Below, piece after piece: positions 11,440 through 53,960 of a stretch of 64,000 nucleotides of DNA (positions are counted from its first letter, which is position 1; each line of letters starts with the position of its first letter). The stretch is taken from positions 1 to 64,000 of IMG/VR virus record IMGVR_UViG_3300044994_000386; one strand, written 5' to 3'. Below the pieces are notes generated by a model, which was not told the origin of the DNA, did not search any database, and saw only the letters and a list, made by a program, of their open reading frames with translations. The stretch is from a virus. The translations under genes were made by a program, and so were the position numbers.

Positions 11440-12192
11440 ATGAATAGAACATTAGCTGGAAAAAGAATCGAATTAATTAGAATGGAGGACCCATATACAA
11501 ACCTTAAAGAAGGTGATAAGGGTACTATTCAATTTATTGATGATATTGGACAAATTCATGTTAAATGGGATAATGGCTCGACTTTAGCTATCTCACCTGA
11601 GATCGATGAATTCAATATTATTGAAGAGTCTTTAAATAAACTGAGACATGTTAGACTATTTGAAGAGTTTATTTTAGGTTCAGATATTGGTTATATTAAT
11701 ACAAAAATGGAAGAGTTATCTGATCTAGTTGATTCAATTGATGATGAATTTATTTCTTTTGAGTGGTCACTGAATAATAATCTTTTAAATGTAACCCTGG
11801 AGATTAACCAAGAACAAATAATAATTAAATATGATATAGAAACCGGTAAATTAATTAGAAACATCAAAGGAAAACTTGATTCTGACCAATGTGATAATGT
11901 TGAAGAAGCTATGGATATTATTGAAGATTGTATTTACAATTTTTTGGGTGTTTCTGAGAGAGCAAAAACCAAAGGTGAAAAATATAAAGGTAAACACATA
12001 CCCGCTAAATATCTAACTAGTAAAAAAGATGCTATGAAAAAAGAAATTGAAGAGTTTCGCGGTAAGAAAAAATACAAAAAAGACTGGGAAGCTGATATAG
12101 ATAAAAGATCTGGTAAAAGAATTGAAACTAAAAAATCAGCCGCCACTAAAGCATATCATCGAATGTTTGAAAAAAAAAAATTAAAAATATGA
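11440..12192 (+). CDS. DUF4314-like domain protein with basic C-terminal tail
   Basis: Predicted 250 aa. Residues 1-60 (GKRIELIRMEDPYTNLKEGD, then IHVKWDNGSTLAISPEID) fit the DUF4314 family, a small beta-rich domain of unknown role. At about residue 68 comes RHVRLFEEFI, which looks like the capsid-targeting motif found at the N-terminus of other proteins here but lies internally. The last 75 residues are very Lys-rich (KGKHIPAKYLTSKKDAMKKE) and resemble small basic phage domains such as DUF5872; I am unsure of that match. It overlaps the next gene by 4 bp, implying coupled translation. A TTAATATATAC core lies about 45 bp upstream. Confidence 0.7.
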   Translation: MNRTLAGKRIELIRMEDPYTNLKEGDKGTIQFIDDIGQIHVKWDNGSTLAISPEIDEFNIIEESLNKLRHVRLFEEFILGSDIGYINTKMEELSDLVDSIDDEFISFEWSLNNNLLNVTLEINQEQIIIKYDIETGKLIRNIKGKLDSDQCDNVEEAMDIIEDCIYNFLGVSERAKTKGEKYKGKHIPAKYLTSKKDAMKKEIEEFRGKKKYKKDWEADIDKRSGKRIETKKSAATKAYHRMFEKKKLKI

Positions 12193-12749
12193 AATACTTA
12201 AAATTATTTGAAAACTTTAAACACGAAGACGTTGTTGCCGGTGATGAATATAATGAATTTGACGAAGACTCAAAAATTGATTTAACGATTGAATTAGAGT
12301 ATAAATTAAGGAATATGCCTCATGATTCTAAACTAACAGTAAATGATTTTATACAAGAATTTGGAATAGACCCAAAAGATATGACTAATTTTGGTTGGGC
12401 AGCAATTTTAAAAAATCGTAAAATTTACAAGGATATGTCAGATGAAGAATTTAATAAATTATATAATGAATATAAAAATTCAATGAATGAATCTAAAAAA
12501 TCTAATATAACTACTTCACTTAAAAAGAAATCTAAAGCATCTGGAATACCTATGAAAATTTTAAGAAAAGTATTCAATAAAGGAATGCAAGCTTGGAATG
12601 CTGGTCATAGACCAGGTGTGGCTCAACATCAGTGGGGAATGGGTCGTGTAAACTCATTCATAACTGGTGTTGGTGGTGCTAGAAAAGCCGATGCTGATTT
12701 ATGGGCTAAAGCCAAAGCTGCTAAATCAAGGTATAAGAAAAAGAAATAA
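12189..12749 (+). CDS. Putative internal (packaged) protein with DUF5824-like basic domain
   Basis: Predicted 186 aa. The N-terminus MKYLKLFENFK is one of the clearest matches to the recurring capsid-targeting-like leader and contains L-F-E. After an acidic middle segment, residues from about 115 on (GIPMKILRKVFNKGMQAWNA, then GHRPGVAQHQWGMGRVNSFI) form a conserved basic domain that I associate with DUF5824 of phages and giant viruses. The tail is Lys/Arg-rich. The start overlaps the stop of the preceding gene (ATGA). A role as a DNA-associated head protein is an inference. Confidence 0.7.
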   Translation: MKYLKLFENFKHEDVVAGDEYNEFDEDSKIDLTIELEYKLRNMPHDSKLTVNDFIQEFGIDPKDMTNFGWAAILKNRKIYKDMSDEEFNKLYNEYKNSMNESKKSNITTSLKKKSKASGIPMKILRKVFNKGMQAWNAGHRPGVAQHQWGMGRVNSFITGVGGARKADADLWAKAKAAKSRYKKKK

Positions 12750-12844
12750 TATATTAACCATCCTAAAAAAAAAATCAAATAACCTTTACAACAAATGAAA
12801 CAATTAGATTTAACAATTATTTTAATTTTAATTTTGTTCCTTAT

Positions 12845-13714: not shown

Positions 13715-13830
13715 AAATATCTTATATTAGTTTTAATTAAATGGTTTTAAAAAAAATAATCTACAAAAAAAAATTATATTATAAAAAATATCAATTATGT
13801 CGGAAGAATTTACCCTTTGAATGATAAAAT

Positions 13831-21327: not shown

Positions 21328-21897
21328 TTATGTTGATTGTTCTTTATTGATTCTTCGTTGAGAGTCAATAAGTTGTTTCTTTATTTTAGCTATTTCCGAG
21401 TCGATCTGTTTTTTCAAGATAATGATTTCAGAATTAAGTTTTTGGATTTCGGTTTTCTTAGATGCTATTTTTTCTTCAATTTCTTTAATTTCTTGTTTCA
21501 AATTATCCATCAGATCCTTGTTCCCTTTTGAAGCATCTTTTTTATTCGTTATTGTTTGTTGATCTGTTTTAATTAACTTCTCAATATCCATTATTTTTCT
21601 CATTTTTCGTGATATCTGAGCATGTATGGCTAGTAGAGGATTTGTAAATTTAATAGTTTTTGTATTACTATTATCTACCTCAATTAGTTTCTGATCTTTT
21701 AACTTATTAATTAAATCTTTATCATCAGTATAAGTCTTATAGATATTATCTAAATTTACTTTTTTAAGATTATACTCAGTGATGTTTTCTTCTAAATCAT
21801 TAAAAGATTTCTTTTGAGAGGCAATCTCAGGATCATCATTTGCGTCTAACTGATATTTCTCAGAAATAAATTTATTATAATTAGATAAATGTTTCAT
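21328..21897 (-). CDS. Putative internal head protein, coiled coil
   Basis: Predicted 189 aa. The N-terminus MKHLSNYNKFISEKY matches the capsid-targeting-like leader, with I-S-E a possible cleavage site. From about residue 90 on it is a long charged coiled coil (KEIEEKIASKKTEIQKLNSE). Its ATG shares one base with the TAA of the 893-aa gene upstream (TAATG), so the two are translationally coupled and probably functionally linked. No enzymatic motif is visible. Packaging in the head is an inference from the leader. Confidence 0.65.
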   Translation of the reverse strand: MKHLSNYNKFISEKYQLDANDDPEIASQKKSFNDLEENITEYNLKKVNLDNIYKTYTDDKDLINKLKDQKLIEVDNSNTKTIKFTNPLLAIHAQISRKMRKIMDIEKLIKTDQQTITNKKDASKGNKDLMDNLKQEIKEIEEKIASKKTEIQKLNSEIIILKKQIDSEIAKIKKQLIDSQRRINKEQST

Positions 21898-24578
21898 TAT
21901 TTTTTGTTATACTTTTCTTTTATATCACTAAGTCCAATAGACTTATCATACTTAGGTCTCATTTTGTCGGTGATAATATCTTTACCTGGTTCTATTTTAA
22001 CAATCTCCATAACATACTTATTATTTTTATCCTTTGGAATATTTAATATGAATCCTTTAACTATCTTAATCTCTTTATCTTTGAGCTCTACTTTATTAAT
22101 AAATTCATTTAGCTCTTGAGTCTTCATATTAAAGGTTCCTCTTAAAGATTCACCTTCAAAGAATCCTATATTAATTTTACCATTTTCACCAAGTTTATCT
22201 ATAAGATCTTGTTCTGGAGATTTAAATTTCTTAGATAATAAATATTTAAAAAGATCTTTATAACCAATCTGATATTTGAAAGCTACTATTTTTTTATTAT
22301 TATTATCAACAAAGGTACCCATGATATACATTACCATTGTATGCTTTTTACCATCTTCATCATAATTCAGTATCAAATATGAGTGTTTATCAAATTCCGA
22401 TTTAGATATACTAAATGGTCTAAGCTCTGATAATACAGTTTGATTCACTACTACTTCATCTTTAGGAACTTCTTTACCTTCCATTGTAGCCTGAGCTGGT
22501 TTTATGTTAGCTTTATCTTCAGCAATGTTAAAATATTTTGTTAATAATTTTCTTCTAGCGGCATCATAATCCTTCAAAGCGTCATCATCTAACATATCAT
22601 TAATAAAATTAAATAGTACTTGACCTGCACCTGGATTACCATTTATAGATAAGTTAGGATTGGCGAATATTTTACGAAGAGAGGGATTTTGTAAAATTGT
22701 CATAACTCCCTTCTTCCATTTATCAAGAACAACCTTTATTGCAAATGGGCCATTCGGGGCTCTATCTGGTTGCCAATCTCCGGTGCCTTTACCTAAGTAT
22801 TTATATTCTCTCCAAGTTTTCTGTGAAACTCGACCATTTGGACGACCGGACGGTATTTGTGGTGTGACAAAAATATTATAAGCGTCTCCAAAAATATCGA
22901 CTATCTTTATTATCGGATCTACATTTTGAGTAGTATCGATGTTTATCTTTATATTCTTGAATTTAGAATTCATGCTATATTTTTCTTCTTTTGAAGCAAT
23001 CCAGATTGACTCATCTTCTTTGGAAAAATTTTTTCTATATACTTCAAAAACAGGATTTTTATCTCCTTTTTTATCACTATCTGATTCATTTATTCTCATG
23101 AATTCTTTATATGATGATAAGAATTTTTCTTTCTTTGGTTTTTCTTCAGAAATTCTTGGTAATGTTTCTTGCATTGAGTCGAAAGAATCTATGATAGATT
23201 GGATGTCTTCGCTTAGACCTTCCATCATTTTTATTAATTCCGGTGAATTTTTGAAACCTAAAATGGGTTTACAAAACAAAGAAATGGATTTGGCCACATC
23301 ACTAAATTTAACGGCTTCAACAACCAATTCACTTGATTCAAGTGGTTTACCATTAGTTTTAAGATTATTTATTAATTGTTTACCAATATAGATTATTTTT
23401 GAATTTACAGTACCTTCTGTTGGCCAAATTATGCCCGCCCATTCAATGCCGGTTTTTTGTTCTGTTTTTGAACCGTCAATCATATCTTGAATCATTTTTA
23501 CATAATTAGAAATATTAGATGATTTATAATATTTTACTAAATTATTATAAGCGATCTTCGCTTTTGTATCTTCAATTGACTCAAATATAAATTTTTCGTT
23601 TTTATTAAATATTTTTGTTTTTTTAACATCACCTGTACCGCTTGAAGAGCTATCAATTGAAAGATTTTTGATGTCAACTTCCATAGTCGGATTATTTGGC
23701 AACGATTTACCAGAATCGTCTAACAATTCCACAAATACACTATTTGGATTACCAAGCTTTCCTTTCTTAACATCATCTTTTGTAATAAATTGTTTATCAT
23801 TACCAATACCGACTTGATTGGTAAATGAAATTAATTTTGCTTTTTTCTTTTCTCCATTTTTATTTGTGTATGTGTAAATACCACCAATCTTAAATTTATT
23901 CTTTTCTGGTGTGGTCTCTTTTTGTTCGGTTGGTTTATTAAGATTTTTGTTTAATAAATTATGTAATGAAATAACGGACTTAAAAATTTGAACCACTGAA
24001 GTCTTGAATTTTTCTTTTGGTTCATCAACTTCTAAGTCTTCATTTTCTATATCTTCATCATCATCTTCTCTTTCAATTTCAACATTTCCACTTTCTCTAA
24101 GTTCTTCTAAGTCTTTTCTAAATTGTTCAATTTGGTTTTTTAATGCTTCTTTTTCTGGGAACTCATTTATTTCATCTAATTCATTAACTAATTGATCAAT
24201 TAAGCCACCATTTTTCAGAAACAAATCAAGTGGCTCAGGCTTCATAGCGGCCTTTTTAATATTCTCAAATAAAGCATAAATAATCGCTTTTCGAAATATT
24301 TCTTTTTCTTTATTTAAATAATCTACTTCTAAAGACTCGAGTTGATATTTTAGCTTTTTTAATAATGGATTTATTCTAAGTATTTTAGTACCAATAATGA
24401 CTTTGCGAATAGTTGAATTTATTAATCTACCTAACAAAGAACCACCCCAAGTTATATCATTTTCTAAGACTTCTTTAACTAATGCGGAAGACTCTAAGTC
24501 TTGTGATTTATAGTTGTAGAATTCTTTGTATTTTATAAAATCTGTTAAAAATTCTTTTCTATTTTTTAAATACTTCAT
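21897..24578 (-). CDS. Large putative internal/structural protein, unknown
   Basis: Predicted 893 aa. The N-terminus MKYLKNRKEFLTDFIKYKEF is a variant of the capsid-targeting-like leader. A second copy of the motif (FLSSYKEFMRINESD) occurs internally around residue 495, as if two packaged proteins had been fused. Residues 165-190 are highly acidic (EIEREDDDEDIENEDLEVDE). The C-terminal half is Lys-rich and may be globular, but I recognise no domain. The promoter core TTAATATATAA lies about 35 bp upstream on the minus strand. It is coupled to the downstream coiled-coil gene. Confidence 0.65.
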   Translation of the reverse strand: MKYLKNRKEFLTDFIKYKEFYNYKSQDLESSALVKEVLENDITWGGSLLGRLINSTIRKVIIGTKILRINPLLKKLKYQLESLEVDYLNKEKEIFRKAIIYALFENIKKAAMKPEPLDLFLKNGGLIDQLVNELDEINEFPEKEALKNQIEQFRKDLEELRESGNVEIEREDDDEDIENEDLEVDEPKEKFKTSVVQIFKSVISLHNLLNKNLNKPTEQKETTPEKNKFKIGGIYTYTNKNGEKKKAKLISFTNQVGIGNDKQFITKDDVKKGKLGNPNSVFVELLDDSGKSLPNNPTMEVDIKNLSIDSSSSGTGDVKKTKIFNKNEKFIFESIEDTKAKIAYNNLVKYYKSSNISNYVKMIQDMIDGSKTEQKTGIEWAGIIWPTEGTVNSKIIYIGKQLINNLKTNGKPLESSELVVEAVKFSDVAKSISLFCKPILGFKNSPELIKMMEGLSEDIQSIIDSFDSMQETLPRISEEKPKKEKFLSSYKEFMRINESDSDKKGDKNPVFEVYRKNFSKEDESIWIASKEEKYSMNSKFKNIKINIDTTQNVDPIIKIVDIFGDAYNIFVTPQIPSGRPNGRVSQKTWREYKYLGKGTGDWQPDRAPNGPFAIKVVLDKWKKGVMTILQNPSLRKIFANPNLSINGNPGAGQVLFNFINDMLDDDALKDYDAARRKLLTKYFNIAEDKANIKPAQATMEGKEVPKDEVVVNQTVLSELRPFSISKSEFDKHSYLILNYDEDGKKHTMVMYIMGTFVDNNNKKIVAFKYQIGYKDLFKYLLSKKFKSPEQDLIDKLGENGKINIGFFEGESLRGTFNMKTQELNEFINKVELKDKEIKIVKGFILNIPKDKNNKYVMEIVKIEPGKDIITDKMRPKYDKSIGLSDIKEKYNKK

Positions 24579-27375: not shown

Positions 27376-27981
27376 TTATTCTTTATTCTTCAAGTACTTA
27401 TCAATCATTTCATTCAAACTACGAGAGTCAGTAATTTGACCAGTTTCAATTTTATTTTCTTCTTCTTCAATTGTTTCAGTTCTTTTTGGCATCTCATTTA
27501 GACCTAAATCTTTACGTATTTCTTTATAAAACTTTTCCAATTCGGTTCTTTGTGTTGTAGCAAACTTTGTGTTTTCGCGTATTTGAGAAATCGTTTGATT
27601 CACAACTTCATGCATACGAGCTGAATTATCACCATTATCTACTTGCCTTAATTGAGTTAAAAAATTTTTACGTGTCATTTTCTGTAAAAAAATAGTTTCA
27701 GCATAAACCATTGCATCTTCTTTCATCTTATTTCTAATATATTGATGTTGTGATACTGGAGAATCACCAAGATATAAATCAACTAAAGACTCGAGAATTT
27801 CATTGGCTTGTGACTTAGCATCTTGAATATCGTTATCATAGTCATAGATTTGAATCTCACCTAAATCTGGTAAATCATCTTTGGTTGCTAAGTATTTAGA
27901 AACGTCTAAATCTTTGTTTTGGTTTTGAATTCTATCAAATTCATCTTGTAGTTCGTTAATCTTTTGTTCTTTCTTGTTCAT
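27376..27981 (-). CDS. Unknown helical protein divergent from the large terminase (possible small terminase)
   Basis: Predicted 201 aa from the ATG at 27979-27981 (MNKKEQKINELQDEFDRIQN); the longer open frame upstream overlaps the terminase promoter region and is rejected. It is largely alpha-helical and charged. A central segment contains HEVVNQTISQIRENTKFATT, and it has an acidic tail. It lies back-to-back with gp17, 49 bp apart. Small terminases are coiled-coil oligomers of 140-200 aa usually next to gp17, so this is a candidate, but the opposite strand and lack of a clear motif keep confidence low. Confidence 0.55.
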   Translation of the reverse strand: MNKKEQKINELQDEFDRIQNQNKDLDVSKYLATKDDLPDLGEIQIYDYDNDIQDAKSQANEILESLVDLYLGDSPVSQHQYIRNKMKEDAMVYAETIFLQKMTRKNFLTQLRQVDNGDNSARMHEVVNQTISQIRENTKFATTQRTELEKFYKEIRKDLGLNEMPKRTETIEEEENKIETGQITDSRSLNEMIDKYLKNKE

Positions 27982-28030
27982 GATTATAAACGAGAATTTT
28001 AGATATATATTGAAAAATAATAATTCCTTT

Positions 28031-30175
28031 ATGATAAATAAAAAACCACCTGTAATTAAAAAAATTGTTTTTACCACAGATTTAGTTGAAAAAACAACCA
28101 AAAGAATTCATGATGGTGAAAAAGTGCAAAAATTTGAAAATCCGTGGTTTGTAGGTGAAATTGGTGTAAGGAGAGCCGGTATCGCATTTAAGCTAAGTGA
28201 AAATGAGATTCAAGAGTATATTCGTTGTAAATTAGATATTCATTACTTTGCTGAAAAATATTGTAAAGTAAAAACAGAAGATGGATCAATTCAAAATATT
28301 AAGTTAAGAGATTATCAAAAAGATATTTTAGATCTTTATACTAAGAACAGATTTTCAATTTTAATGGGTTCGCGACAGATTGGTAAAACAATTAATGCGG
28401 CAATTACAATGTTACACTTTATTACTTTTAATAATGATAAAAACATTATGATTGTAGCAAATATCCGAGGGACTACAATTGAAATTGTGGATAAAATAAA
28501 ATCGATTTATGTTAATTTACCATTTTTTTTGAAAGTAGGTATTAAAAATTGGAACCAACAATCCATTATCTGCGAAAATGGTTGTCGTATTAAGACTGCT
28601 GCTCGAAGTAAATCACCTGCGATTGGTTTTACAATTGATTTTCTTTACCTAGATGAGTTTGCACATATTCCATCAAATATTATCGAACCTTATTACACTG
28701 CGGCTTTCCCAGTAGTTTCGGCGATTGAAAACTCTAAAATTATTATTACTTCAACCCCAAAAGGTATGAATCTTTTCTATCGATTACTTATGGATGCTGA
28801 AAGACCAGAAGGTGATCCCCAAAAGAATAACTATCGAGCAATGAGAGTTTACTGGTATCAAGTGCCGGGTCGATTTGTAACTTATTATAGATTAAATAAT
28901 CATCGAATGTATGAACATGGGGTTACAAAAGAACAAATATTTGAACAAGTTAAAGAGCACTTTAGTGATTTTACAAAGGTAGAAATGAAATTCAACTCAG
29001 AACTTGTTAAATATGTAATTTATGTTTATAATAATGATACCTGTTCGGAAGAAATGGCTAAGAAATTTGAATTTATAAATTCAAAAGGCGAATCATTGCC
29101 GATACAAAATATCGCAGAAGTAACAACTTGGAAACAAGAAGCGATTAAAGATATCGGTGGTGAAGAAGCATTTAACCAAGAATATGGTCTTAGATTTATA
29201 AATACCACTCGTTCATTATTGAATGAAAGTATTATTGAGTCATTAATTGAGAATAAAAAACATTATGAATATGAAAAGATTTATGAATTCGATAAAAAAT
29301 TAAAATTTAGTTATTCTGACTTGAAATGGATAAAAGATGATGAAGTATTCACACCAGTGATGAGAAATTCGATCAGGGGAGTGATGTCAGTAGATATTTC
29401 TGAAGGTTTAGGTCAGGACTATTCGGTAATTAATATATTCAAAATTGCACCAAAACCAAAAGAAGTAATCGATGTTTTTAAACATACATATACTTCACTT
29501 TCAGATTTCTTTTGTCTGCAACAGATTGGTATGTACCGATCTAATTTTGTTTCAGTAAAACAATTGGCAGAAATTTTTTACCTACTAGTGTTTGAATATT
29601 TTAATTATGAAAATTGGAAAGTAGTACTTGAGGTTAATAACTATGGTAATGAGTTTTTAGCACATTTGCCACACGTTTTTGATGGCAATAATAATTATGG
29701 TTCTTCAATATTTTTTAGGTATAAGCATAGATTAGATGCGGTTGAAGAAAAAATAGGACTCAAAGTCGGTGATAATAAAAATATGTTAGTAAAAGAATAC
29801 CAAGAAGCTATGGAGAAGCGTAATTTTATAATTACACAAGAAGATAACATTCGAGAAATAACTACATTCGTAAAACACATAACTCCGTCTGGAAATGTGA
29901 GATATGCCGCAGATATTGGGAATGATGATACGGTAATGACTTTGGTAAACTTATCATCAGTATTCAGCAAACACGCATTCAAAGAAATGGTAGAAGATTA
30001 TGCTCCACAGATTGTAGATGCCACAACTTTAAATGAATGGAATCAATTCTTGAAAAATATTGAATATATAGAAGGTACTGATTATTCTTCGCTTATAAAT
30101 GTAAATCGCAAACGTAAATTAATAAATCAATATAGGAAAAATTTCAGACCAGGAAATAATTGGTTAGGAATTTAA
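28031..30175 (+). CDS. 17: Terminase large subunit (T4 gp17-like)
   Basis: Predicted 714 aa from ATG 28031; T4 gp17 is 610 aa. It is the ATPase and nuclease that pumps DNA into the prohead and cuts concatemers. The ATPase shows the Q-motif-like KLRDYQKDILDLY, Walker A variant MGSRQIGKTIN near residue 117, Walker B FLYLDEFAHI near 202 and the coupling ITSTPKG near 235. The nuclease has RGVMSVDISEGLGQDYSVIN near 450 and the acidic cluster VVLEVNNYGNEF, as in the RNase H-like domain. The start was chosen over an upstream one because the preceding codons overlap the divergent gene. A late-type core lies about 25 bp upstream. Confidence 0.92.
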   Translation: MINKKPPVIKKIVFTTDLVEKTTKRIHDGEKVQKFENPWFVGEIGVRRAGIAFKLSENEIQEYIRCKLDIHYFAEKYCKVKTEDGSIQNIKLRDYQKDILDLYTKNRFSILMGSRQIGKTINAAITMLHFITFNNDKNIMIVANIRGTTIEIVDKIKSIYVNLPFFLKVGIKNWNQQSIICENGCRIKTAARSKSPAIGFTIDFLYLDEFAHIPSNIIEPYYTAAFPVVSAIENSKIIITSTPKGMNLFYRLLMDAERPEGDPQKNNYRAMRVYWYQVPGRFVTYYRLNNHRMYEHGVTKEQIFEQVKEHFSDFTKVEMKFNSELVKYVIYVYNNDTCSEEMAKKFEFINSKGESLPIQNIAEVTTWKQEAIKDIGGEEAFNQEYGLRFINTTRSLLNESIIESLIENKKHYEYEKIYEFDKKLKFSYSDLKWIKDDEVFTPVMRNSIRGVMSVDISEGLGQDYSVINIFKIAPKPKEVIDVFKHTYTSLSDFFCLQQIGMYRSNFVSVKQLAEIFYLLVFEYFNYENWKVVLEVNNYGNEFLAHLPHVFDGNNNYGSSIFFRYKHRLDAVEEKIGLKVGDNKNMLVKEYQEAMEKRNFIITQEDNIREITTFVKHITPSGNVRYAADIGNDDTVMTLVNLSSVFSKHAFKEMVEDYAPQIVDATTLNEWNQFLKNIEYIEGTDYSSLINVNRKRKLINQYRKNFRPGNNWLGI

Positions 30176-30187: not shown

Positions 30188-30601
30188 ATGAAACATCTAA
30201 AAGATTTTGAAAAATTCAAAGAAAGACTTTTTGATATATTCTCAAGTAGTGAAAAAAATAGAGAAGAAATGAATGTATCAAAAAGACTTAAAGAAAATGA
30301 TATTGTTCAGATATTTGAAACAGATCCTGAAACTAAAAAACAAAATGACACTACTTGTTTTTTAATTTGGAAAGGTGAAGATGGTAAACAAAATAATAAG
30401 GTTGCTAAGATATCACTTGATAAAATGAATGAATATGGTAAACCTATTTTTAAATTAACAATATTCGAAGGTGATAAAGTCAAATCAACTAAATTTTTTC
30501 TAAGTCAAGAGTTAGCAACACATCAGTTCTTAAACTATTGGGAGTCTCAAACTGATGAGGGTAGAAAGAAAAATAAAAGCTACAAGATTAAGAAATTTTA
30601 A
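30188..30601 (+). CDS. Putative internal head protein
   Basis: Predicted 137 aa, starting MKHLKDFEKFKERLFDIF, a clear capsid-targeting-like leader. The remainder (ENDIVQIFETDPETKKQNDT, then TCFLIWKGED and a Lys-rich end) has no recognised domain. It lies 12 bp behind gp17, with an AT-only promoter-like stretch (AATATATATATTT) directly before the ATG. Its stop overlaps that of the convergent clpS by 4 bp. Packaging is inferred from the leader only. Confidence 0.65.
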   Translation: MKHLKDFEKFKERLFDIFSSSEKNREEMNVSKRLKENDIVQIFETDPETKKQNDTTCFLIWKGEDGKQNNKVAKISLDKMNEYGKPIFKLTIFEGDKVKSTKFFLSQELATHQFLNYWESQTDEGRKKNKSYKIKKF

Positions 30602-41705: not shown

Positions 41706-42383
41706 ATGAAGCATCTAAATAAATTTAATGAAATTTGGAAACAAGAACCAGAAGAACGTTACATAATAAATAAATATTTAGATATTTTAAAGGATGGTAA
41801 AGAATTAAATCAAAATCAAAAAGATTTTATTAATAGGTATTTCGAATATCCGGATCTTTATGACATCACATCTAAATGGCTTCAAAATAAATTTGATACT
41901 TTTTCAAAATATAATATCGAAGAAATCGAAGATAGATTGGTAGAATTCTTTGATCAAATTATTCATTGGGATCCATATTTGATGTTTTCATTATATATGA
42001 AATACTCAGGCGGTGAAAGCTGGCTTAGTATATATCCAGAAAAATTAAATGACCCAAAATATTTACTAACCGAACTATCATATGTTTTTTCAGATTTACT
42101 ATTCCACACAAAGACTAGAAAATATTCTAAACCAGAATTCACAATAGATTATTATTTAGAAAATAAAAGACCAGCCATAAGCATCCATTTCAATAGAGCC
42201 TATCAAAGTCGAGAGTCTTACAACTTGTTGTTTTTAGAAGATTTAAGTGATAAAATTGTTAATCGCCTTTCTCAGTTGTATAAAATAGTCGATGTCATGT
42301 CAGATAATAACAGACATAACAGTAGATTATATGATCCGGAAACTGATGTAAACGATTATATTTTGACTTTAATCATTGAATAA
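41706..42383 (+). CDS. Putative internal head protein
   Basis: Predicted 225 aa, starting MKHLNKFNEIWKQEPEERYI with the capsid-targeting-like leader. The rest is an alpha/beta protein without recognisable motifs (ESWLSIYPEKLNDPKYLLTE; ISIHFNRAYQSRESYNLLFL). The upstream AT-only stretch (AATATATATATTTATTT) is a probable promoter next to the ATG. Packaging is inferred from the leader. Confidence 0.63.
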   Translation: MKHLNKFNEIWKQEPEERYIINKYLDILKDGKELNQNQKDFINRYFEYPDLYDITSKWLQNKFDTFSKYNIEEIEDRLVEFFDQIIHWDPYLMFSLYMKYSGGESWLSIYPEKLNDPKYLLTELSYVFSDLLFHTKTRKYSKPEFTIDYYLENKRPAISIHFNRAYQSRESYNLLFLEDLSDKIVNRLSQLYKIVDVMSDNNRHNSRLYDPETDVNDYILTLIIE

Positions 42384-45568: not shown

Positions 45569-46207
45569 ATGATTTTTGATAGTTCAGTGTGGCAATCAAC
45601 CACCTCATCATCGGAATTTTTTGAATATCAAGTTGGTCCAATAATAACTAAAAATCCATGGGGTAGACCATCTTATGATAAATTGAAATCGATTTTAATA
45701 GATGCTTATCAAAATACTATGCTTGGTGAGTATGATGTTGATATCTATGGTGGTGTCTTATTTAGTTGGAATGAAACTTGGGATGTCGATATATCAATCA
45801 GAAACGGGTTACAAGACTATGAATTAATTGAAAGTTTGATGAATTATATAACAGATATATCACTCAATAAATATTCAACATTAGTTGATGTCAAATATAA
45901 TTATCATAAATTCACTGAAGGTAAAAATTATTACGAAGAAGGGAAACCACATTTGAAGTATTTCTACTATAGAAAACAATGCGGTGATAGATGGCATGAG
46001 TTATACTTGGATCGAGAAGATACAATTAAGGTTACAAAAAATTTAATTAAGTCTGGTTGGAGATCACAAAAAGAATCTCAGGCTACTAAGTTATTAAATA
46101 GACTATTAAAATATGGTCCAAATATGGTCACAACATTTGATGCAAAAATATTTATTGAGAAAGACGAAGAATATTTTAATAGTCACACAAATAGAAATTT
46201 ATTCTAA
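45569..46207 (+). CDS. Unknown protein with nucleotidyltransferase-like segment
   Basis: Predicted 212 aa. VDIYGGVLFSWNETWDVDIS near residue 58 resembles the G-[GS]-x9-13-D-x-D core of the polymerase-beta-type nucleotidyltransferase fold. The third carboxylate may lie in STLVDVKYN near 107. It follows the tail-fibre gene directly, and its end overlaps the convergent gene. Activity is unproven; a structural role linked to the fibre operon is equally possible. Confidence 0.5.
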   Translation: MIFDSSVWQSTTSSSEFFEYQVGPIITKNPWGRPSYDKLKSILIDAYQNTMLGEYDVDIYGGVLFSWNETWDVDISIRNGLQDYELIESLMNYITDISLNKYSTLVDVKYNYHKFTEGKNYYEEGKPHLKYFYYRKQCGDRWHELYLDREDTIKVTKNLIKSGWRSQKESQATKLLNRLLKYGPNMVTTFDAKIFIEKDEEYFNSHTNRNLF

Positions 46208-46882
46208 TCTCTTAAACCACCAATTAAAATAAATATAATTGTCACCCACCATATGATAATAATCGTTTGAGTATTTGATTAAGATTTTATTCTCAAATGA
46301 TCTAATAACTTCAACTTCTGTATTTTTTTCGAGTTTTAATAATCTACCAGTTTCAACAGAAAAACAGAATGCTTCATCATTTAAAAGTTTGTAATTACCT
46401 TTTTCTGGATTTAACCACTCTTTAACTGCTTTGATAATCAATCCTTTGATTTTTATTACCCACTCTTTAGATTGAACTAAATCATAATCTTTGAATATTT
46501 CTGAAGTAAAAGATGGATTTTTATCTAAGATATTTTTTATTTGACCCCAATACTCTTTATCAGCAACATTAAAACTAATATAAACATCATAATTAATATT
46601 ATTTGATTTGACAATTCGTAAGACTCTCATCGATTGAATGTTTTGATCTTCTAGAGTCAAATTTGATTTTAATTGTTTAAAAGAGGTCGAATTAGATAAG
46701 GTTTGTAAAATACTATTGATTCGAGCTATTCCCATTCTAATGGCATCTTGGTGCTTATCAAACGCATTTATTGAAAGTTGTGGGTTGTCTACGTTTGGCA
46801 TCGGATAATTAACCGAATCTGGATTCATTCTATTTAAGTTAAATTCGGTAAACTCTAAAATTAATCTATTTCTCTTTTTCAT
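46199..46882 (-). CDS. Probable internal/structural protein, unknown
   Basis: Predicted 227 aa from ATG 46880-46882. The longer frame to 46945 adds a hydrophobic stretch read through the divergent promoter region and is rejected. The start MKKRNRLILEFTEFNLNRMN has an L-x-E and F-x-x-F arrangement similar to, but longer than, the usual leader. A conserved-looking block NVDNPQLSINAFDKHQDAIR follows. The promoter region towards the divergent coiled-coil gene contains minus-strand TTAATATATAG. Confidence 0.6.
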   Translation of the reverse strand: MKKRNRLILEFTEFNLNRMNPDSVNYPMPNVDNPQLSINAFDKHQDAIRMGIARINSILQTLSNSTSFKQLKSNLTLEDQNIQSMRVLRIVKSNNINYDVYISFNVADKEYWGQIKNILDKNPSFTSEIFKDYDLVQSKEWVIKIKGLIIKAVKEWLNPEKGNYKLLNDEAFCFSVETGRLLKLEKNTEVEVIRSFENKILIKYSNDYYHMVGDNYIYFNWWFKRLE

Positions 46883-46924: not shown

Positions 46925-47236
46925 ATGAAAATTAAAAGATTCCAAGAAGCACTCGATGAAAAAATTGAAATTTCTCTGGAAAGAATTGAAGAGATAATAT
47001 CAGAATTGACTAATATTTCAACTAATTTAGACGCATCAAGAGAAAGAATTGAATCATTTTCTAATGAATTATCAAACTACCAATCTAAATCAAAAAATTA
47101 CAATGACCAGATCGATGATTCTGTAATTAATTTAGATATAGTGAAATCAAATTTTGATCAAATAATTTCTTCGATTGATACGGTTGTTACTAATCTTAAA
47201 GACTATAAAGATAAAGGTCGTAACTTCTTATACTAA
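46925..47236 (+). CDS. Small coiled-coil protein, possible internal protein
   Basis: Predicted 103 aa from ATG 46925; an in-frame ATG two codons earlier is equally possible. The start MKIKRFQEALDEKIEISLER is a shortened form of the leader. Almost the whole protein is an alpha-helical heptad pattern (IEEIISELTNISTNLDASRE). It may be a packaged or scaffold-type helper. It is divergent from the preceding gene, 42 bp apart. Confidence 0.6.
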   Translation: MKIKRFQEALDEKIEISLERIEEIISELTNISTNLDASRERIESFSNELSNYQSKSKNYNDQIDDSVINLDIVKSNFDQIISSIDTVVTNLKDYKDKGRNFLY

Positions 47237-47340: not shown

Positions 47341-47853
47341 TTATTTATTAAATTTCAATTTATAAAGTAAGATATAAATCAAAGATAAAATTTCATCTAC
47401 AATATTTAATAGATGTGAGTCTTCAACATCAATACACTTCCTTTCAGTTTTAACAAAGTTTGCTAATTCTTCAAAGTATTGCACTTTATCTTTTGAAGTG
47501 GCTTCTTTGGTATCTATTGGCGTATATTGCTCAATCAAACCATACTGACCTTGATAAACTTCAATTAATTTATCGATAAAGTCTAATAAATCATCATAGA
47601 AGTCACTTAATGCGATGTGTGCTGCATATGATCCCATATCACCTTTAACTTGTAGGTGATATACATGTGCCATCTGACGAGCTTCAAATAATTTAGAAAA
47701 GAAAGCACTTATATTAGTATTGTTTTTAGGTTTTTGTTGTTCAATGTATTGATTTTTATCTTGATTATCAGTTTTTTGTTCTGATTGTTCAGGTTGTTCA
47801 GTAGTTTGTAGATTATTCTTTTGTTTAAATAATTTAAATTTTTTAATTTCCAT
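47341..47853 (-). CDS. DUF5856-like four-helix protein with packaging-like leader
   Basis: Predicted 170 aa. The start MEIKKFKLFKQKN is a leader variant, followed by a Gln/Glu/Asn linker. Residues 48-165 form a helical bundle (FFSKLFEARQMAHVYHLQVK, then YAAHIALSDFYDDLLDFIDK) matching the family I know as DUF5856 in phages and giant viruses. Its H-x-x-H-L-Q and H-x-x-x-x-x-F-Y patterns recall Dps or ferritin-like folds. DNA or metal binding is conjecture. The gene is 9 bp downstream of the next minus-strand gene. Confidence 0.62.
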   Translation of the reverse strand: MEIKKFKLFKQKNNLQTTEQPEQSEQKTDNQDKNQYIEQQKPKNNTNISAFFSKLFEARQMAHVYHLQVKGDMGSYAAHIALSDFYDDLLDFIDKLIEVYQGQYGLIEQYTPIDTKEATSKDKVQYFEELANFVKTERKCIDVEDSHLLNIVDEILSLIYILLYKLKFNK

Positions 47854-47862: not shown

Positions 47863-48252
47863 TTATATTTTTCCTTTTAATGCATTGAAAATAACCATAC
47901 CATCAAATCCAGCATTTCTAAGTTGATGATAAAATTCCATTTTTTCAGTTTTATTTGGTGTTTTATCTGCAAAAGTATTATTCCATGCAGTTTTAATTTT
48001 ATCCTCGGGTGTTAAATCATTTGGTAGATTATCTAGATCTAAGTCTAAAGATTCTTGAATTTTCATTTCAGACATTTTCTCAACCGAATTTATAGTATAT
48101 CCGGATTGATTCTTAACAGCTGCTAATATCGAGTCAGCTAAATAAGAAGCCTCGCCTTGATTCTTAGCCTTTAAATTCAATTCAATATCAGCTCGAATTT
48201 TATAAAGAGAATCAAATTTATTAGATTCAACTAATTTTGAGAATAGTTTCAT
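47863..48252 (-). CDS. Putative internal head protein
   Basis: Predicted 129 aa, starting MKLFSKLVESNKFDSLYKIR, a leader variant containing L-V-E. The rest is helical with an acidic stretch (ESLDLDLDNLPNDLTPEDKI) and ends in a small conserved-looking segment (FYHQLRNAGFDGMVIFNALK). It is transcribed away from the metalloprotease gene from the shared palindromic promoter. Function unknown. Confidence 0.62.
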   Translation of the reverse strand: MKLFSKLVESNKFDSLYKIRADIELNLKAKNQGEASYLADSILAAVKNQSGYTINSVEKMSEMKIQESLDLDLDNLPNDLTPEDKIKTAWNNTFADKTPNKTEKMEFYHQLRNAGFDGMVIFNALKGKI

Positions 48253-48300: not shown

Positions 48301-49344
48301 ATGAATTATTTAAAAAATTTCTATATGTTTGAGGAAGTTAGGGGTGTTGCTGAAGCTACGCTTTACCTATCTGATTTTCTATGTCAATTTATCACAAAAG
48401 AATCAATTGAGTTTCAAAAAGAAAATGAAGATAAAGAATCAGCAGAATCAACTGAAGAATATATTTTCAATTACAACGATTTAAAACCATATCTTCCAAA
48501 AAAATCAATCTATGCTTACTTCCCAGTTTCAAGGATCAATCTCACACTTTTATTAAAGAAGGAAGTTAAATCGGATACATATCCTTTCAAAATAGGTGGT
48601 TGGGCCGTAAGATTTGGAAAAAAGAAAAAAGGTTATTCTTATTTTAAAAAAGGTGTAAAAAAAAATAAAGATCATTCAATATCTATTTCTATGGGTATAG
48701 AAGTATATGTTGGTAATCTTGACTTAGAGTTGGATACTGATAATAGTTTTCAGATAAAACTCGAAGCTGTAATTTTACATGAATTAAATCACTTCTATGA
48801 ACATTATAATAGAAGTTGGGATCCATATGGTAGAGAAATTGAAACAAGTGTAACTTGGGCGTCTATTGGTGATATACCAAAAAATGTGAATGAAAAAGTA
48901 TATATTTTCTGGCAAGATAATTTTACTTATTATATTTATCAATCTGAACCTCATGAAGTAAATGCTCAAATTCAAGAAGCTAAGCCATATGTTGATAAAT
49001 TAAGTTTTAAAGAACTTAAAAAAACAAACTTTTGGAAAAATATTAAGGCTATGCAGAATTACGATGAACAAAAGTTTTTACAGAAATTTCATGAGGAAGT
49101 ATTAATTCATGATCCTACTTTAATTGAATCAGAAGTGCTTTCACAATATATAAATATTTGGAAAAAAGAATATAAAAAATTATATAAATTACAAAAAGAT
49201 AAAAATAGTCCAAGACCAGAATTCTTCGAAAAAATGTCAGATAGTCAATTTATGAATTACTGGGGTAAAAAAATCAGAGAGGCTGGTGGTAAAATAGTAA
49301 GAAAAATTATTAAACAATATTCAAATAAACAAAAAGAGGACTAA
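48301..49344 (+). CDS. Zinc metalloprotease-like protein with capsid-targeting-like leader
   Basis: Predicted 347 aa. The leader is MNYLKNFYMFEEVRG. Near residue 160, AVILHELNHFYEHYN has the HExxH zinc-protease motif, and EPHEVNAQIQEA about 60 residues later supplies a plausible third ligand Glu in the right position. The C-terminal third is a charged helical region. No signal peptide is present, so it is not secreted in the usual way. A packaged peptidase could act in the head or after injection. Only the HExxH pattern is seen directly. Confidence 0.65.
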   Translation: MNYLKNFYMFEEVRGVAEATLYLSDFLCQFITKESIEFQKENEDKESAESTEEYIFNYNDLKPYLPKKSIYAYFPVSRINLTLLLKKEVKSDTYPFKIGGWAVRFGKKKKGYSYFKKGVKKNKDHSISISMGIEVYVGNLDLELDTDNSFQIKLEAVILHELNHFYEHYNRSWDPYGREIETSVTWASIGDIPKNVNEKVYIFWQDNFTYYIYQSEPHEVNAQIQEAKPYVDKLSFKELKKTNFWKNIKAMQNYDEQKFLQKFHEEVLIHDPTLIESEVLSQYINIWKKEYKKLYKLQKDKNSPRPEFFEKMSDSQFMNYWGKKIREAGGKIVRKIIKQYSNKQKED

Positions 49345-50447: not shown

Positions 50448-50705
50448 ATGAAACCAATTAAAAAGTTTGAAGAGTTTATTTATAGCGGTGGTGATACTCA
50501 ACCATCACCAGGTACAAAACCTATCGAGACACCAACAAGACCAAGTACTAAACCTTCACAAAAACCAAACAAGCCTTCGCCTATTAGAAGAGATAAACCA
50601 GCCGTAGTACCAGCCCCAAAAGCTAAAAAAGAAAATGAGTTACCAACCGCTACGGTTGATGATGTAATTCAAAAATTTGCAAAATTGACAAATCAAAAAA
50701 AATAA
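50448..50705 (+). CDS. Putative internal head protein, Pro/Lys-rich
   Basis: Predicted 85 aa, starting MKPIKKFEEFIYSGGDTQPS, a clear leader. The remaining sequence is disordered, with Pro, Lys and Thr repeats (PTRPSTKPSQKPNKPSPIRR), and ends in a short helix. The size and basic, disordered nature resemble T4 internal proteins IPI to IPIII. It begins a plus-strand run of three probable packaged proteins. Confidence 0.68.
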   Translation: MKPIKKFEEFIYSGGDTQPSPGTKPIETPTRPSTKPSQKPNKPSPIRRDKPAVVPAPKAKKENELPTATVDDVIQKFAKLTNQKK

Positions 50706-50715: not shown

Positions 50716-52200
50716 ATGAAAAGCTTCCAAAAATTTTTAGAAGAAGTAACAATAAAAGGTAATCCTGCTATACCAGGTGAAAATGGAAAAAAACCTGGTG
50801 ATAAAGACTATTTAAGAGACATTGAGTCTAGAGCAAAAGCTAGATTGGGCATTTCAGGAAGAGAAAATCCTATGCAGTTTGGTGGAAGAATTATGCAATT
50901 ATTATCTCTATCACAAAGAATGACTCGTGGTCATGAAAAAGAGTTAGAGAAATTAGCAAAAGAAATCATACTTAAAAACTATGGAGAAATCTTAGATGGT
51001 GTTGAATTAGATATAAAACTTTTTGGTTCTGGTCAACAAATTGCTAAATTTATGAAAAATGTTAGTAAAGAACAAAAAGAACAACAAGAAGTTGAAAATA
51101 ACAAAAATTATCCGGTTATGAGACAGATTAAAGATCCGGATACCATCAATAAAATTCACAAAGCAAAAATAGGAAATAATATTATTCAAGGTGAAGCTAA
51201 AAACACAAAACATATTATCGCAACCGAAGAAGTTAAAAATGGCTTGATTAAAATTTTTGGAGATAAAGCTGAACAATTATTAAATATATGGAAAGAAATA
51301 AGTAATTTGGCTGATAAAATGGATTGGATTATTCCAATTGATAATAAAGCCGAAATGATGGAACGTGTCCCTGATGGAATGGCAGGAGCTGTTTCGATAG
51401 ATTGGAAACCTAAAGAAGACCAATCTAAGGAGGATGAAAATAAAGATTTCGCTACAAAAATATTGAATGATTTAGCAAATGAAATAGAGCCTGAAGAAAA
51501 AGATATAGAAAAATTACAAGACGAGTTTGAATTGATGCAGCCTCGAATTAGAGCAAGAGGCATAGATTTCCCTATGTTGATTCATGAAACTGTTAAAGGT
51601 ATTTACGAATTAATCGCTTCAGTTCAATTTCCAAGTAAAAATGCTTCAGAGGATGAAATTAAAAAAGCACAAACTGTTGAATTAAACGTAAGTTCTTTTA
51701 TGGATGAAGCAGAAGATTTTAGAACAGGTCCAGAAATTGCTGCTGATTTTAGAGATTTCATTAATGCTAATCCAAAAGCAACTCATCCAAATATGAGAGC
51801 ATTTATATTTGGGATGTTAATGGATTCAAATTATATCTCAGATGAAGAATTTTTAAAACTATTTAGAGGTATATTGAATGGCACACAAGAGGCTCGTAAA
51901 AAAATCGATGAAATGATAGATGAGGTAAATAAAAAATTAAACCAATATGAACTGAGTCAAGTTATTGATATTGAAGAACCAGAGATCGAAATTCCTCAAA
52001 ATTCGAATCAGAAAAAAGATTATTCAGAAATGTCACAAAAACAAATTCAAGAGTTAATTGATGACGCTTTAGATGCAGGTGATATGGATAAAGTAAAAAT
52101 ACTTTCTCAATATTTAAAAGAAGGTGCTAAAATTTACCTATCAGAATTAAAAAAATTAAATGAAGGTTATATACCTCATAATAAATTAAAAAAAAAATAA
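50716..52200 (+). CDS. Putative internal/structural head protein
   Basis: Predicted 494 aa. The start MKSFQKFLEEVTIKGNPAIP is the leader variant closest to T4 MKTYQEFIAEA, with L-E-E. The protein is helical, with conserved-looking segments SRAKARLGISGRENPMQFGG near 38 and RGIDFPMLIHETVKGIYELI near 285. It ends with a helix-rich regulatory-looking tail (EMSQKQIQELIDDALDAGDM). It starts 10 bp after the Pro-rich gene. Function unknown; comparable large proteins occur as head-associated products in other myoviruses, but I cannot name a family. Confidence 0.66.
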   Translation: MKSFQKFLEEVTIKGNPAIPGENGKKPGDKDYLRDIESRAKARLGISGRENPMQFGGRIMQLLSLSQRMTRGHEKELEKLAKEIILKNYGEILDGVELDIKLFGSGQQIAKFMKNVSKEQKEQQEVENNKNYPVMRQIKDPDTINKIHKAKIGNNIIQGEAKNTKHIIATEEVKNGLIKIFGDKAEQLLNIWKEISNLADKMDWIIPIDNKAEMMERVPDGMAGAVSIDWKPKEDQSKEDENKDFATKILNDLANEIEPEEKDIEKLQDEFELMQPRIRARGIDFPMLIHETVKGIYELIASVQFPSKNASEDEIKKAQTVELNVSSFMDEAEDFRTGPEIAADFRDFINANPKATHPNMRAFIFGMLMDSNYISDEEFLKLFRGILNGTQEARKKIDEMIDEVNKKLNQYELSQVIDIEEPEIEIPQNSNQKKDYSEMSQKQIQELIDDALDAGDMDKVKILSQYLKEGAKIYLSELKKLNEGYIPHNKLKKK

Positions 52201-52208
52201 ATAGGTAT

Positions 52209-53960
52209 ATGTTAATCATAAAATATAATGATTTCTTAGATATAAGATTAAATGAGAATGTTCAAGCAGCAAAGGCTTACTTGAGAGATTTAGCTTTGGC
52301 CAAAAAGAAAAATATAGATAAAAATGCAGAGCTAACTCCTGAAGAAGTACGTAGAGTAGAAAACAATCCAGATTTCTTAAAAATAAAAGAAATGCTGAAA
52401 GATAACCCAGGATACACCTATGCTTTCACAAGGTTTTTCTTTGATGAGGGAATTGATATTAATGAGTTGCAAAGAGTCTATAACAAGCTTAAAGAATTAA
52501 GACAATCTCTTAATTTATTATCAATGCCCATTGATAAGTTTGCTGATGTAAAACCATCGAATGAAGATCCACGTAAAGGTTTTGAAAGATTACTTGATGA
52601 TATTGCTAAAATTGAGATTTCTCGTACTGTTAAGAAATGGGTAAATCAATTACCAAGTGATTTAAAACGCGAATACCAAAATGCTTCAGTTGTTCAAAAA
52701 GAAAAAATTAAAGGTATTGCAATAGCATTTGATGAATTTGGTAAAGAACTAGACGGTACTAAAAATTGGGAAAAAAATAAAGAATTACAGGATTTATTTT
52801 TCTTAAAAGTTAAAAGATATAAAAATATATCCGACTTAATTATAGCTGCAAATAATTATATTAAGGCCGCAAATAATGCTCAAATTTCTAAATTCTTACA
52901 AGCTATTCAAAAAGTTAATGTTAAATATGGCCAGATGAATGGTGTTGAAATCATTTTTGATGAGAATAGAATTTTGATTATTGAGGTTAAATCTTTTTTT
53001 GCTAACAGAGAATTAAACTCTAATACAGCACATTGTATTGCTTCTTCTCATAGTCAGTGGGATAATTACGTCGGTGCTGATAATATATATAACAAGCAAT
53101 ATTATATTTACAATTTTAATTTACCACCATCTGATAACTATTCAGTTATTGGTATTACAATTGGACCTGGAAATAAAATCACTGCATGTCATGCTAAAGA
53201 TGATAGAAATATATCCGGTTCAATTAAAACTATCCTAAAACAATGGCAGAATAATTATAATATAAATGTTAATATATTAGAATTATTAGCTGCAATGACA
53301 CCAGACGAAATTGAAGCCAAAAAGAAAAGAATTGCTGCAAATAAAGAAATTGTTAAACCTGGTCTTTCTATTGATAAAATTAAACATTATCTTGAAGAAG
53401 GTGCTGATCCAAATGCTCAACAAGGTAAGCCTTTAAATAATGCGGTTAAAGAAGATGATTATGATAAGGCTAAACTTTTATTGGAAAAAGGTGCCTCACC
53501 AAATATTGGTAATTCAATTAAATATGCCAAAAACCTTGATATGATTAAGTTACTAGTTGACTATGGTTCTGAAATCAATAATGATGTTTTCCTCAATATT
53601 ATCAATGATTATGACGCAGTTGAGTATGTATTAAAAGCAGGAATTGATCCAAACTTTGAAAAAGGTCTTCCATTAAGAAATGCTGCTAAATTAGGTAGAA
53701 CTGATATTATGAAGCTTCTTATCAAATATGGTGCTAGAATTTCTGAAAGAAGATATATGGTTGTTAAATGGGCACTTGAATGGGCACAGATTGATGCGAT
53801 TAAACTATTATTTCAAGAACTTGAAAAATCAGGTAATAGTGTTGATAAAGAATTCTTAGAAAAATCACAATTCAAACATTGGGTACAAACTTCTGATAAA
53901 GTATCTGAAGATAAAATTAAAAAAGTTCTAGACTTCTTAGATCAATATGGAACTAATTAA
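52209..53960 (+). CDS. Ankyrin-repeat protein with unknown N-terminal domain
   Basis: Predicted 583 aa. The start MLIIKYNDFLDIRLNENVQA resembles the leader without the second-position Lys. Residues 90-370 form an unknown domain with NTAHCIASSHSQWDNYVG near 275 and VIGITIGPGNKITACHAKDD near 320. From about 390 on there are four to five ankyrin repeats (KHYLEEGADPNAQQGKPLNN, KLLLEKGASPN, KLLVDYGSEINN, EYVLKAGIDPNF, KLLIKYGARIS). Ankyrin repeats bind proteins. In this position the protein may be a packaged host-interaction factor. It is the last gene of its run, followed by a terminator. Confidence 0.7.
   Translation: MLIIKYNDFLDIRLNENVQAAKAYLRDLALAKKKNIDKNAELTPEEVRRVENNPDFLKIKEMLKDNPGYTYAFTRFFFDEGIDINELQRVYNKLKELRQSLNLLSMPIDKFADVKPSNEDPRKGFERLLDDIAKIEISRTVKKWVNQLPSDLKREYQNASVVQKEKIKGIAIAFDEFGKELDGTKNWEKNKELQDLFFLKVKRYKNISDLIIAANNYIKAANNAQISKFLQAIQKVNVKYGQMNGVEIIFDENRILIIEVKSFFANRELNSNTAHCIASSHSQWDNYVGADNIYNKQYYIYNFNLPPSDNYSVIGITIGPGNKITACHAKDDRNISGSIKTILKQWQNNYNINVNILELLAAMTPDEIEAKKKRIAANKEIVKPGLSIDKIKHYLEEGADPNAQQGKPLNNAVKEDDYDKAKLLLEKGASPNIGNSIKYAKNLDMIKLLVDYGSEINNDVFLNIINDYDAVEYVLKAGIDPNFEKGLPLRNAAKLGRTDIMKLLIKYGARISERRYMVVKWALEWAQIDAIKLLFQELEKSGNSVDKEFLEKSQFKHWVQTSDKVSEDKIKKVLDFLDQYGTN

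What the first reader, a model, noticed from the sequence alone, without database searches (positions are those of the whole stretch)
12189..53960. A recurring capsid-targeting-like leader on more than fifteen unrelated proteins
Genes starting at 12189, 21897(-), 24578(-), 30188, 32546, 33409, 36477(-), 41706, 48252(-), 48301, 50448, 50716 and, more loosely, 46882(-), 46925, 47853(-) and 52209 begin with variants of M-K-[HY]-[LI]-x-x-[FY]-[EN]-x-[FY], such as MKHLKLFESF, MKYLKLFENF, MKPIKKFEEF and MKSFQKFLEE. The LRR family starts MKYLLESSKF. T4 internal proteins begin MKTYQEFIAEA, a signal for loading into the prohead, and gp21 cuts after [LI]-x-E; here L-F-E, L-L-E, L-E-E and I-S-E lie at the same place. 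This predicts an unusually large packaged and probably injected proteome.
Basis: partly seen in the sequence, partly recalled or inferred. Interest (0 to 1): 0.88.

Follow-up and report, generated by a model that had tools for sequence, protein, structure and literature searches.

The report
T4-type capsid-packing tag in megaphages
Dozens to over a hundred unrelated proteins of the largest known phages (Mahaphages, to which this window belongs) begin with the same short, probably removable tag that phage T4 uses to load proteins into its head, and their head scaffold appears to be built from tandem copies of that tag, so these phages may pack a very large set of proteins with their DNA.

Summary
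The window is part of an 86 kb fragment of a Mahaphage-type virus (TerL 64% identical to the 642 kb phage LR756502). Non-paralogous N-termini match the strict leader pattern 9 times in 74 genes, against 0.17 expected from shuffling. In LR756502 about 153 of 949 genes carry the leader (about 4 expected by chance); in the 735 kb phage 125 of 982 (about 19 expected); T4 and Tenacibaculum phage PTm1 show no such excess. (1) The best-conserved leader positions, 4 and 7, are those shown genetically to target T4 IPIII. (2) The clade encodes a T4 gp21-type protease with the catalytic His and Ser conserved, plus gp20 and gp23 homologues. (3) The likely cleavage sites of its capsid protein (INE|N) and protease ([IL]NE|S) recur in the leaders. 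(4) The protease is fused to a scaffold with 8-10 tandem copies, 14 residues apart, of the T4 tag motif (YSEYIAEN; T4 has YQEFIAEA). (5) Leader genes share a late-type upstream AATATATA with structural genes. Packaging and cleavage are inferred with good confidence; injection is plausible but untested. The gene starting at 24578(-) is a doubtful member. No virion proteomics was found.

The parts
12189..12749 (+). leader MKYLKLFE|NF on a DUF5824-domain protein (186 aa)
   Evidence: pattern; Pfam DUF5824 E=1e-15, domain at 83-165, after the leader
21328..21897 (-). leader MKHLSNYNKFISE|K; coiled-coil-like protein next to the tail sheath gene
   Evidence: homologues at 32-40% identity keep it: MIKKYSEFILEN, MIKKYKDFISEK, MIRTYKSFVNEL; 17 of 19 homologues
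21897..24578 (-). 893 aa protein with N-terminus MKYLKNRKEFL; doubtful member, cleavage site not conserved
   Evidence: only 1 of 14 homologues fits
30188..30601 (+). leader MKHLKDFEKFKE|R; variable cargo slot between TerL and clpS; AATATATA 13 nt upstream
   Evidence: this slot holds 8 different cargo families in relatives, nearly all with the leader; upstream motif
32546..33211 (+). leader MKHIRKFESY with a further h-x-E site EIIRE|S; Q/E-rich tail; conserved family
   Evidence: 58 homologues; leader conserved, e.g. MKHIRQFESY in LR756502
33409..34131 (+). leader MKHLKLFE|SF plus a 35-residue insertion ending RISE|S directly before the enzyme-like domain
   Evidence: in 9 relatives a short leader such as MKYLKTFE|SY abuts the same domain without the insertion; AATATATA 13 nt upstream
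35767..36477 (-). leader MKYLKYFE|SQ
   Evidence: 4 of 4 homologues keep it
41706..42383 (+). leader MKHLNKFNE|IW; AATATATA 17 nt upstream
46199..46882 (-). N-terminus MKKRNRLILE|FTEF; weak member
   Evidence: start supported by orthologues MKDRKSRLILEF and MKRKNKLILEF
46925..47236 (+). leader MKIKRFQE|A
   Evidence: orthologues MKKIRKFNE|S and MKIRKFNE|D
47341..47853 (-). N-terminus MEIKKFKLFK on a DUF5856 protein; weak member
   Evidence: no h-x-E in the first 37 residues; Pfam
47863..48252 (-). leader MKLFSKLVE|S; AATATATA 15 nt upstream
   Evidence: orthologue MKKFTKLLE|E
48301..49344 (+). leader MNYLKNFYMFE|E on a 347 aa protein with HELNH motif; AATATATA 13 nt upstream
   Evidence: orthologue MGIINFKNFQLNE|K
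50448..50705 (+). leader MKPIKKFEE|F on a small Pro-rich protein
50716..52200 (+). leader MKSFQKFLE|E; nearly the register of T4 MKTYQEFIAE
   Evidence: orthologues MKNFSKFLE|E and MKSFEQFLKE|E
52209..53960 (+). leader MLIIKYNDFLDIRLNE|N on an ankyrin-repeat protein
   Evidence: orthologues ..KYNQFIGKPLTE|N and ..KYNQFLGEKPLNE|N; Ank_2 E=4e-12 at 466-537
97..10684 (-). LRR paralogue array; copies start MKYLLE|SSKF; possible very short leader
   Evidence: N-termini; LRR_4
27974..30175 (+). TerL, used to place the phage among Mahaphages
   Evidence: 64% identity to LR756502 and LR745206

Best explanation
The leader is a T4-type capsid-targeting propeptide, expanded in Mahaphages to roughly 60-150 proteins per genome. 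Step 1 (shown): many otherwise unrelated proteins carry a short N-terminal motif, hydrophobic or aromatic residues at about positions 4 and 7, then hydrophobic-x-E followed by a small residue. Step 2 (inferred): the motif docks the protein on the assembling prohead core, because the core scaffold is itself a chain of the same motif repeated every 14 residues. Step 3 (inferred): the gp21-type S77 protease, fused to that scaffold, cuts after h-x-E in the capsid protein, in itself, in the scaffold repeats and in the leaders, freeing the cargo inside the head. Step 4 (speculative): many cargoes are ejected with the DNA and act early in infection, like T4 IPI-III and Alt. Cargo genes are interchangeable; the leader is what is kept.
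For: Excess of leaders: 153/949 genes in LR756502 with about 4 expected, 125/982 in the 735 kb phage with 19 expected, 63/449 in a 385 kb contig with 6 expected. Conserved positions: in LR756502 position 4 is L/I in 89% and position 7 is Y/F in 85%; T4 IPIII targeting maps to residues 4 and 7 and processing to 8 and 10 (PMC9026906). Cleavage: h-x-E follows in 103/125 leaders against 139/355 other M[KRIVL] starts (p about 1e-17); hNE[SANG] is 7- to 13-fold enriched at N-termini in four Mahaphage genomes and about 4-fold in a fifth. Protease: PF03420 matches, gp21 crystal structure 5jbl E=2e-6, His (GEFDHP) and Ser (SSR) aligned with T4 gp21, and [IL]NE|S just after the protease domain where T4 has ITE|S. 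Capsid protein ..SINE|NAYVNA, T4 FLTE|AEIGG. Scaffold: [FY]xx[FY][ILVM]xE[ASGNH], modelled on T4 IPII/III, occurs 8-10 times in one protein per Mahaphage, the protease-scaffold fusion; elsewhere 0.9-2.4 per 1000 aa at N-termini against 0.06-0.08 internally; spacing 14 aa. Portal, protease and capsid genes lie beside two leader genes. Late-type AATATATA: leader 71/143 against 112/787 in LR756502; T4-late homologues 13/22, T4-early 1/46. Codon use in the leader matches the genome, so the constraint is on protein. About 100 cargo families; cargo swapping in one slot.
Against: The protease and capsid protein are not on the window's own 86 kb record; they are inferred from relatives. No packaging, N-terminal or injection data exist. 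41 of the 153 LR756502 leader proteins belong to one divergent family. The upstream motif is not significantly associated with leaders in the 735 kb phage (p=0.08). PTm1 has a gp21-type protease but no leader excess, so the protease does not imply the leader. Leader sequences are degenerate and ORF starts are mechanical.
Confidence: 0.85

Rival explanations
1. The leader is a packaging and cleavage tag, but most tagged proteins are core or structural parts degraded or kept in the head, not effectors injected into the host.
For: Several conserved members look structural (32546 with a Q/E-rich tail; 21328 coiled-coil-like; 221232 and 222007 beside the portal in LR756502).
Against: Most are variable, interchangeable accessory genes (about 100 families), some with enzyme domains such as GNAT, SET, RNA ligase or NUDIX, which a scaffold does not need.
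Confidence: 0.3
2. The leader sends proteins to some other place (membrane, phage replication compartment, tail) and its resemblance to the T4 signal is superficial.
For: A short Lys-rich hydrophobic/aromatic helix could bind a membrane; two leader-like genes lie beside the tail sheath gene.
Against: The same motif makes up the scaffold repeats, and the h-x-E sites match the protease's own and the capsid protein's sites.
Confidence: 0.07
3. The shared start is a DNA-level relic: gene starts with their promoter are copied by recombination and the peptide has no function.
For: Leader genes share an upstream AATATATA about 13 nt before the start.
Against: Leader codons follow genome codon use, and homologues at 30-40% identity keep the amino-acid pattern with different residues.
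Confidence: 0.04
4. Chance: AT-rich genes often start with MK and aromatic residues.
For: K is common at position 2 in these genomes.
Against: Observed counts exceed shuffles and internal-Met decoys many-fold; PTm1, with a related terminase and many MK/MN starts, shows 1 of 297.
Confidence: 0.01

Closest known systems
T4 capsid targeting sequence (IPI, IPII, IPIII, Alt) with gp21 protease
   Same: 10-20 residue N-terminal tag, key residues at 4 and 7, h-x-E cleavage by an S77 protease, variable cargo behind a constant tag, homologous portal, protease and capsid protein
   Different: T4 has a handful of tagged proteins, Mahaphages dozens to about 150; clade-specific consensus (MKHLKKYNES, MIKKFxxFxNE); protease fused to the scaffold; scaffold with 14-aa repeats of the tag motif
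phiKZ/SPN3US head ejection proteins
   Same: many head proteins, several processed by a gp21-type protease after a glutamate; identical N-termini on divergent SPN3US gp53 and gp54 (PMC5694885)
   Different: those propeptides are mostly longer, cleavage is A-x-E or S/A-x-E, no short tag on over a hundred proteins
T-even ip loci
   Same: interchangeable cargo genes at one place with a conserved tag (the TerL-clpS slot)
   Different: here spread over the whole genome

Membership tests
T4-type capsid targeting sequence | short N-terminal tag shared by unrelated proteins | tested here: met
T4-type capsid targeting sequence | conserved targeting residues at positions 4 and 7 | tested here: met
   LR756502 leaders: L/I at 4 in 89%, Y/F at 7 in 85%; shifted by one residue in the 735 kb phage
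T4-type capsid targeting sequence | protease site [LI]xE (here h-x-E) at the end of the tag | tested here: met
   103/125, 37/40 and 56/65 leaders; single proteins lack it
T4-type capsid targeting sequence | gp21-type S77 protease encoded by the phage | tested here: met
   met in relatives; not found on the window's own incomplete record
T4-type capsid targeting sequence | tagged protein enters the prohead | not testable with these tools
   needs virion proteomics or a reporter fusion
T4-type capsid targeting sequence | tag removed by the protease | not testable with these tools
   needs N-terminal mass spectrometry or an in vitro digest
injected internal proteins | delivered into the host with the DNA | not testable with these tools
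   no data
S77 prohead protease | catalytic His and Ser at gp21 positions | tested here: met
   alignment with T4 gp21 and with 5jbl, whose chain carries Ala at both places
Mahaphage clade | terminase (and capsid protein) closest to the 634-735 kb phages | tested here: met
   TerL 64% to LR756502 and LR745206; the paper names the 634, 636, 642 and 735 kb genomes as its largest and puts them in Mahaphage; no tree built here

The most novel reading that the evidence does not exclude
The tag works by imitating the scaffold: the prohead core is a polymer of the 14-residue tag motif, tagged proteins join it as extra repeats, and one protease releases them all. This would explain how the T4 tag recruits cargo, and it would let the largest phages deliver around a hundred different proteins at infection.
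Probability: 0.45. Interest if true: 0.88.

Novelty: new variant of a known kind. Interest (0 to 1): 0.8.

Why it matters
Most genes of the largest phages have no known function. A readable tag sorts dozens to about 150 of them per genome into one predicted fate, the virion interior, and so gives a candidate list of injected early effectors and anti-defence proteins. The tandem tag repeats in the scaffold give a concrete hypothesis for how the T4 signal, known since 1996, recruits cargo.

Tried and rejected
Pfam PF03420 and PF07068 on the window's own record: nothing, and the controls were silent too. The EM model on the small window record and on T4/PTm1 alone over-calls, so those counts were not used. 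The topoisomerase and D12 methyltransferase hits among leaders are likely false positives (posteriors 0.50 and 0.89). The ClpP at 49434-50156 as head protease (PHROG label): rejected; it is an ordinary Clp protease (Pfam E=5e-52) and relatives have an S77 protease. Structure of the 33409 cargo: poor model (pLDDT 59), no fold match; its profile has no credible PDB hit. Model of the protease-scaffold fusion: low confidence (pLDDT 45), though the repeats come out as one long helix. Phage PAU: weak and not significant for the tag patterns.

Full report
WHAT THE WINDOW IS. The window is bases 1-64000 of an 86,435-base virus record. Its terminase (27974-30175) is 64% identical to those of LR756502 (642 kb) and LR745206 (635 kb), and 41-43% to LR756504 (636 kb) and LR756501 (735 kb). 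Al-Shayeb et al. describe four complete genomes of 634, 636, 642 and 735 kb and place all their largest genomes in the Mahaphage clade (PMC7162821). The window is thus a fragment of a Mahaphage-type genome; I built no tree. Gene order around the terminase matches LR756502 over some 20 kb.

THE OBSERVATION. All the listed starts exist. With LRR paralogues removed, 9 of 74 genes match ^M[KN]x[LIVMF]xx[FY][END], against 0.17 with residues shuffled and 0.18 with internal segments; internal methionines give 0 of 399. A looser pattern gives 19 of 76 against 4.3 and 2.9.

IT IS CLADE-WIDE. I tiled LR756502 and LR756501, most of a 385 kb contig (G002), the first 381 kb of LR756504, and as controls T4, PTm1 and PAU. 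A two-component model of positions 2-13 finds 153 of 949 leader genes in LR756502 (about 4 expected from internal-Met decoys), 125 of 982 in LR756501 (about 19) and 63 of 449 in G002 (about 6). LR756501 uses a variant, M-I-K-K-F-x-x-[FY]-x-x-E, for example MVKNYSTYINE|A. LR756504 has MKNIKKFIDFINE|S and similar. By strict pattern PTm1 has 1 of 297 and T4 1 of 254. After removing 14 residues the 153 proteins form 126 BLAST clusters; an iterated profile shows that 41 of them belong to one divergent family, leaving about 100 families.

IT IS A PROTEIN SIGNAL. Codon use inside the leader follows genome use. Homologues of 21328-21897 at 32-40% identity keep the pattern with different residues: MIRTYKSFVNEL, MIKKYSEFILEN, MIKKYKDFISEK. 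Over the window's leader families, 90 of 111 comparable homologues keep the core, leaving out the 24578(-) family, where only 1 of 14 does; background is about 20%. That gene is therefore a doubtful member.

LINK TO T4. In T4 IPIII (MKTYQEFIAEA) targeting depends mainly on residues 4 and 7 and processing on 8 and 10; gp21 cuts after L/I-x-E (PMC9026906). In LR756502 leaders, position 4 is L/I in 89% and position 7 is Y/F in 85%. An h-x-E follows in 103/125, 37/40 and 56/65 leaders of three genomes, against about 40% of comparable other genes.

THE MACHINERY. Relatives encode a T4-type portal (E=1e-57) and Gp23 capsid protein (E=4e-28), and an S77 protease. A five-sequence profile of the protease hits 5jbl, T4 gp21, at E=2e-6. 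T4's GELNHPP and SSRG align with GEFDHPD and SSRA; the 5jbl chain carries alanine at the His and at the first Ser (seen in the alignment). Just after the protease domain, [IL]NE|S stands where T4 has ITE|S. The ten capsid proteins read (nine Mahaphage-type and PTm1) have [IM]NE|N in the N-terminal region (SINE|NAYVNA in most), where T4 gp23 has FLTE|A. The leaders use the same words: hNE[SANG] is 7- to 13-fold over-represented at N-termini in four genomes.

THE SCAFFOLD IS MADE OF THE TAG. The protease is fused to about 500 further residues. I scanned whole proteomes with [FY]xx[FY][ILVM]xE[ASGNH], modelled on T4 YQEFIAEA. In each of four Mahaphages one protein stands out with 8-10 copies: this fusion (YSEYIAEN and variants). 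In the remaining proteins the motif is 14- to 30-fold denser at N-termini than inside. In T4 it occurs in IPII, IPIII and gp23 among others. The repeats lie exactly 14 residues apart, two heptads. The structure model shows one long helix there, at low confidence.

LATE EXPRESSION. AATATATA, usually about 13 nt before the start, precedes 71 of 143 LR756502 leader genes and 112 of 787 others (p=4e-19), 24/58 against 76/376 in G002 (p=6e-4) and 11/17 against 16/57 in the window's record (p=0.007); in LR756501 the difference is not significant (p=0.08). It precedes 13 of 22 homologues of T4 late genes and 1 of 46 homologues of T4 early genes over four genomes; orthologues in related genomes are not independent, so that p value is optimistic. 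The motif was found on the same data it was tested on in LR756502; the other genomes are the fairer test.

CARGO. In the slot between terminase and clpS, relatives hold 8 different cargo families, nearly all with the leader. In 33409-34131 the leader is followed by a 35-residue insertion ending in RISE|S directly before a domain that in nine relatives abuts a short leader. Pfam hits among LR756502 leader proteins include GNAT, SET, RNA ligase 1, FkbM, NUDIX and lysozyme, each on one or two proteins; the leader set matches 33 families against 115 for an equal number of other genes, so it is mostly uncharacterised.

MECHANISM. Shown: the shared tag, its clade-wide expansion, the protease with conserved active site, the site matches and the scaffold repeats. 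Inferred: docking on the core, cleavage, packaging. Speculative: injection and host take-over; T4 Ip1-3 are injected and block type IV restriction enzymes (PMC12373910), a precedent only.

NOVELTY. The tag is a known kind. New, as far as the held papers show, are its expansion to dozens to about 150 proteins in the largest phages and a scaffold built from tandem copies of it. The passages of the jumbo-phage survey found here do not mention it (PMC7824862). Papers outside the library were not searched.

LIMITS. Gene starts are mechanical; leader counts carry an estimated false share; the window's own protease and capsid gene are not on its record; no experiment was possible.

Noticed in passing
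window 30598-30879 (-) and 49434-50156 (-): The phage encodes both ClpS (N-end-rule adaptor, E=2.5e-19) and ClpP (E=5e-52). Whether it edits host N-end-rule degradation while producing many proteins with new N-termini is open.
   Followed up: partly
upstream of leader and structural genes, e.g. 13 nt before 30188, 33409 and 48301: AATATATA looks like a late promoter element of Mahaphages, comparable to T4 TATAAATA.
   Followed up: partly
window 11440-12192 (+): DUF4314 protein with an internal leader-like stretch LNKLRHVRLFEEFILGSD after the domain; possibly a fused gene pair.
   Followed up: no
L036, L052, L053, L061, L063 and others: In several relatives the terminase match is much longer than its aligned residues or begins near residue 139, as if the gene were interrupted by an intein or intron.
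   Followed up: no
LR756502 10-45 kb and 419-426 kb (L102-L104, L125): Runs of small leader genes, many of one divergent family (motif like DILLELEDDGF, 51 members by profile), resembling an amplified cargo locus.
   Followed up: partly
window 97-10684 (-): Array of about 11 LRR paralogues, nearly all starting MKYLLESS.
   Followed up: no
window 53993-55537 (-) and 39342-40448 (-): A protein resembling TROVE/Ro60 and one resembling glutamine synthetase, judged from sequence only.
   Followed up: no
LR756501 609226, 623865, 699854: Three separate ORFs in the 735 kb phage match T4 terminase large subunit.
   Followed up: no
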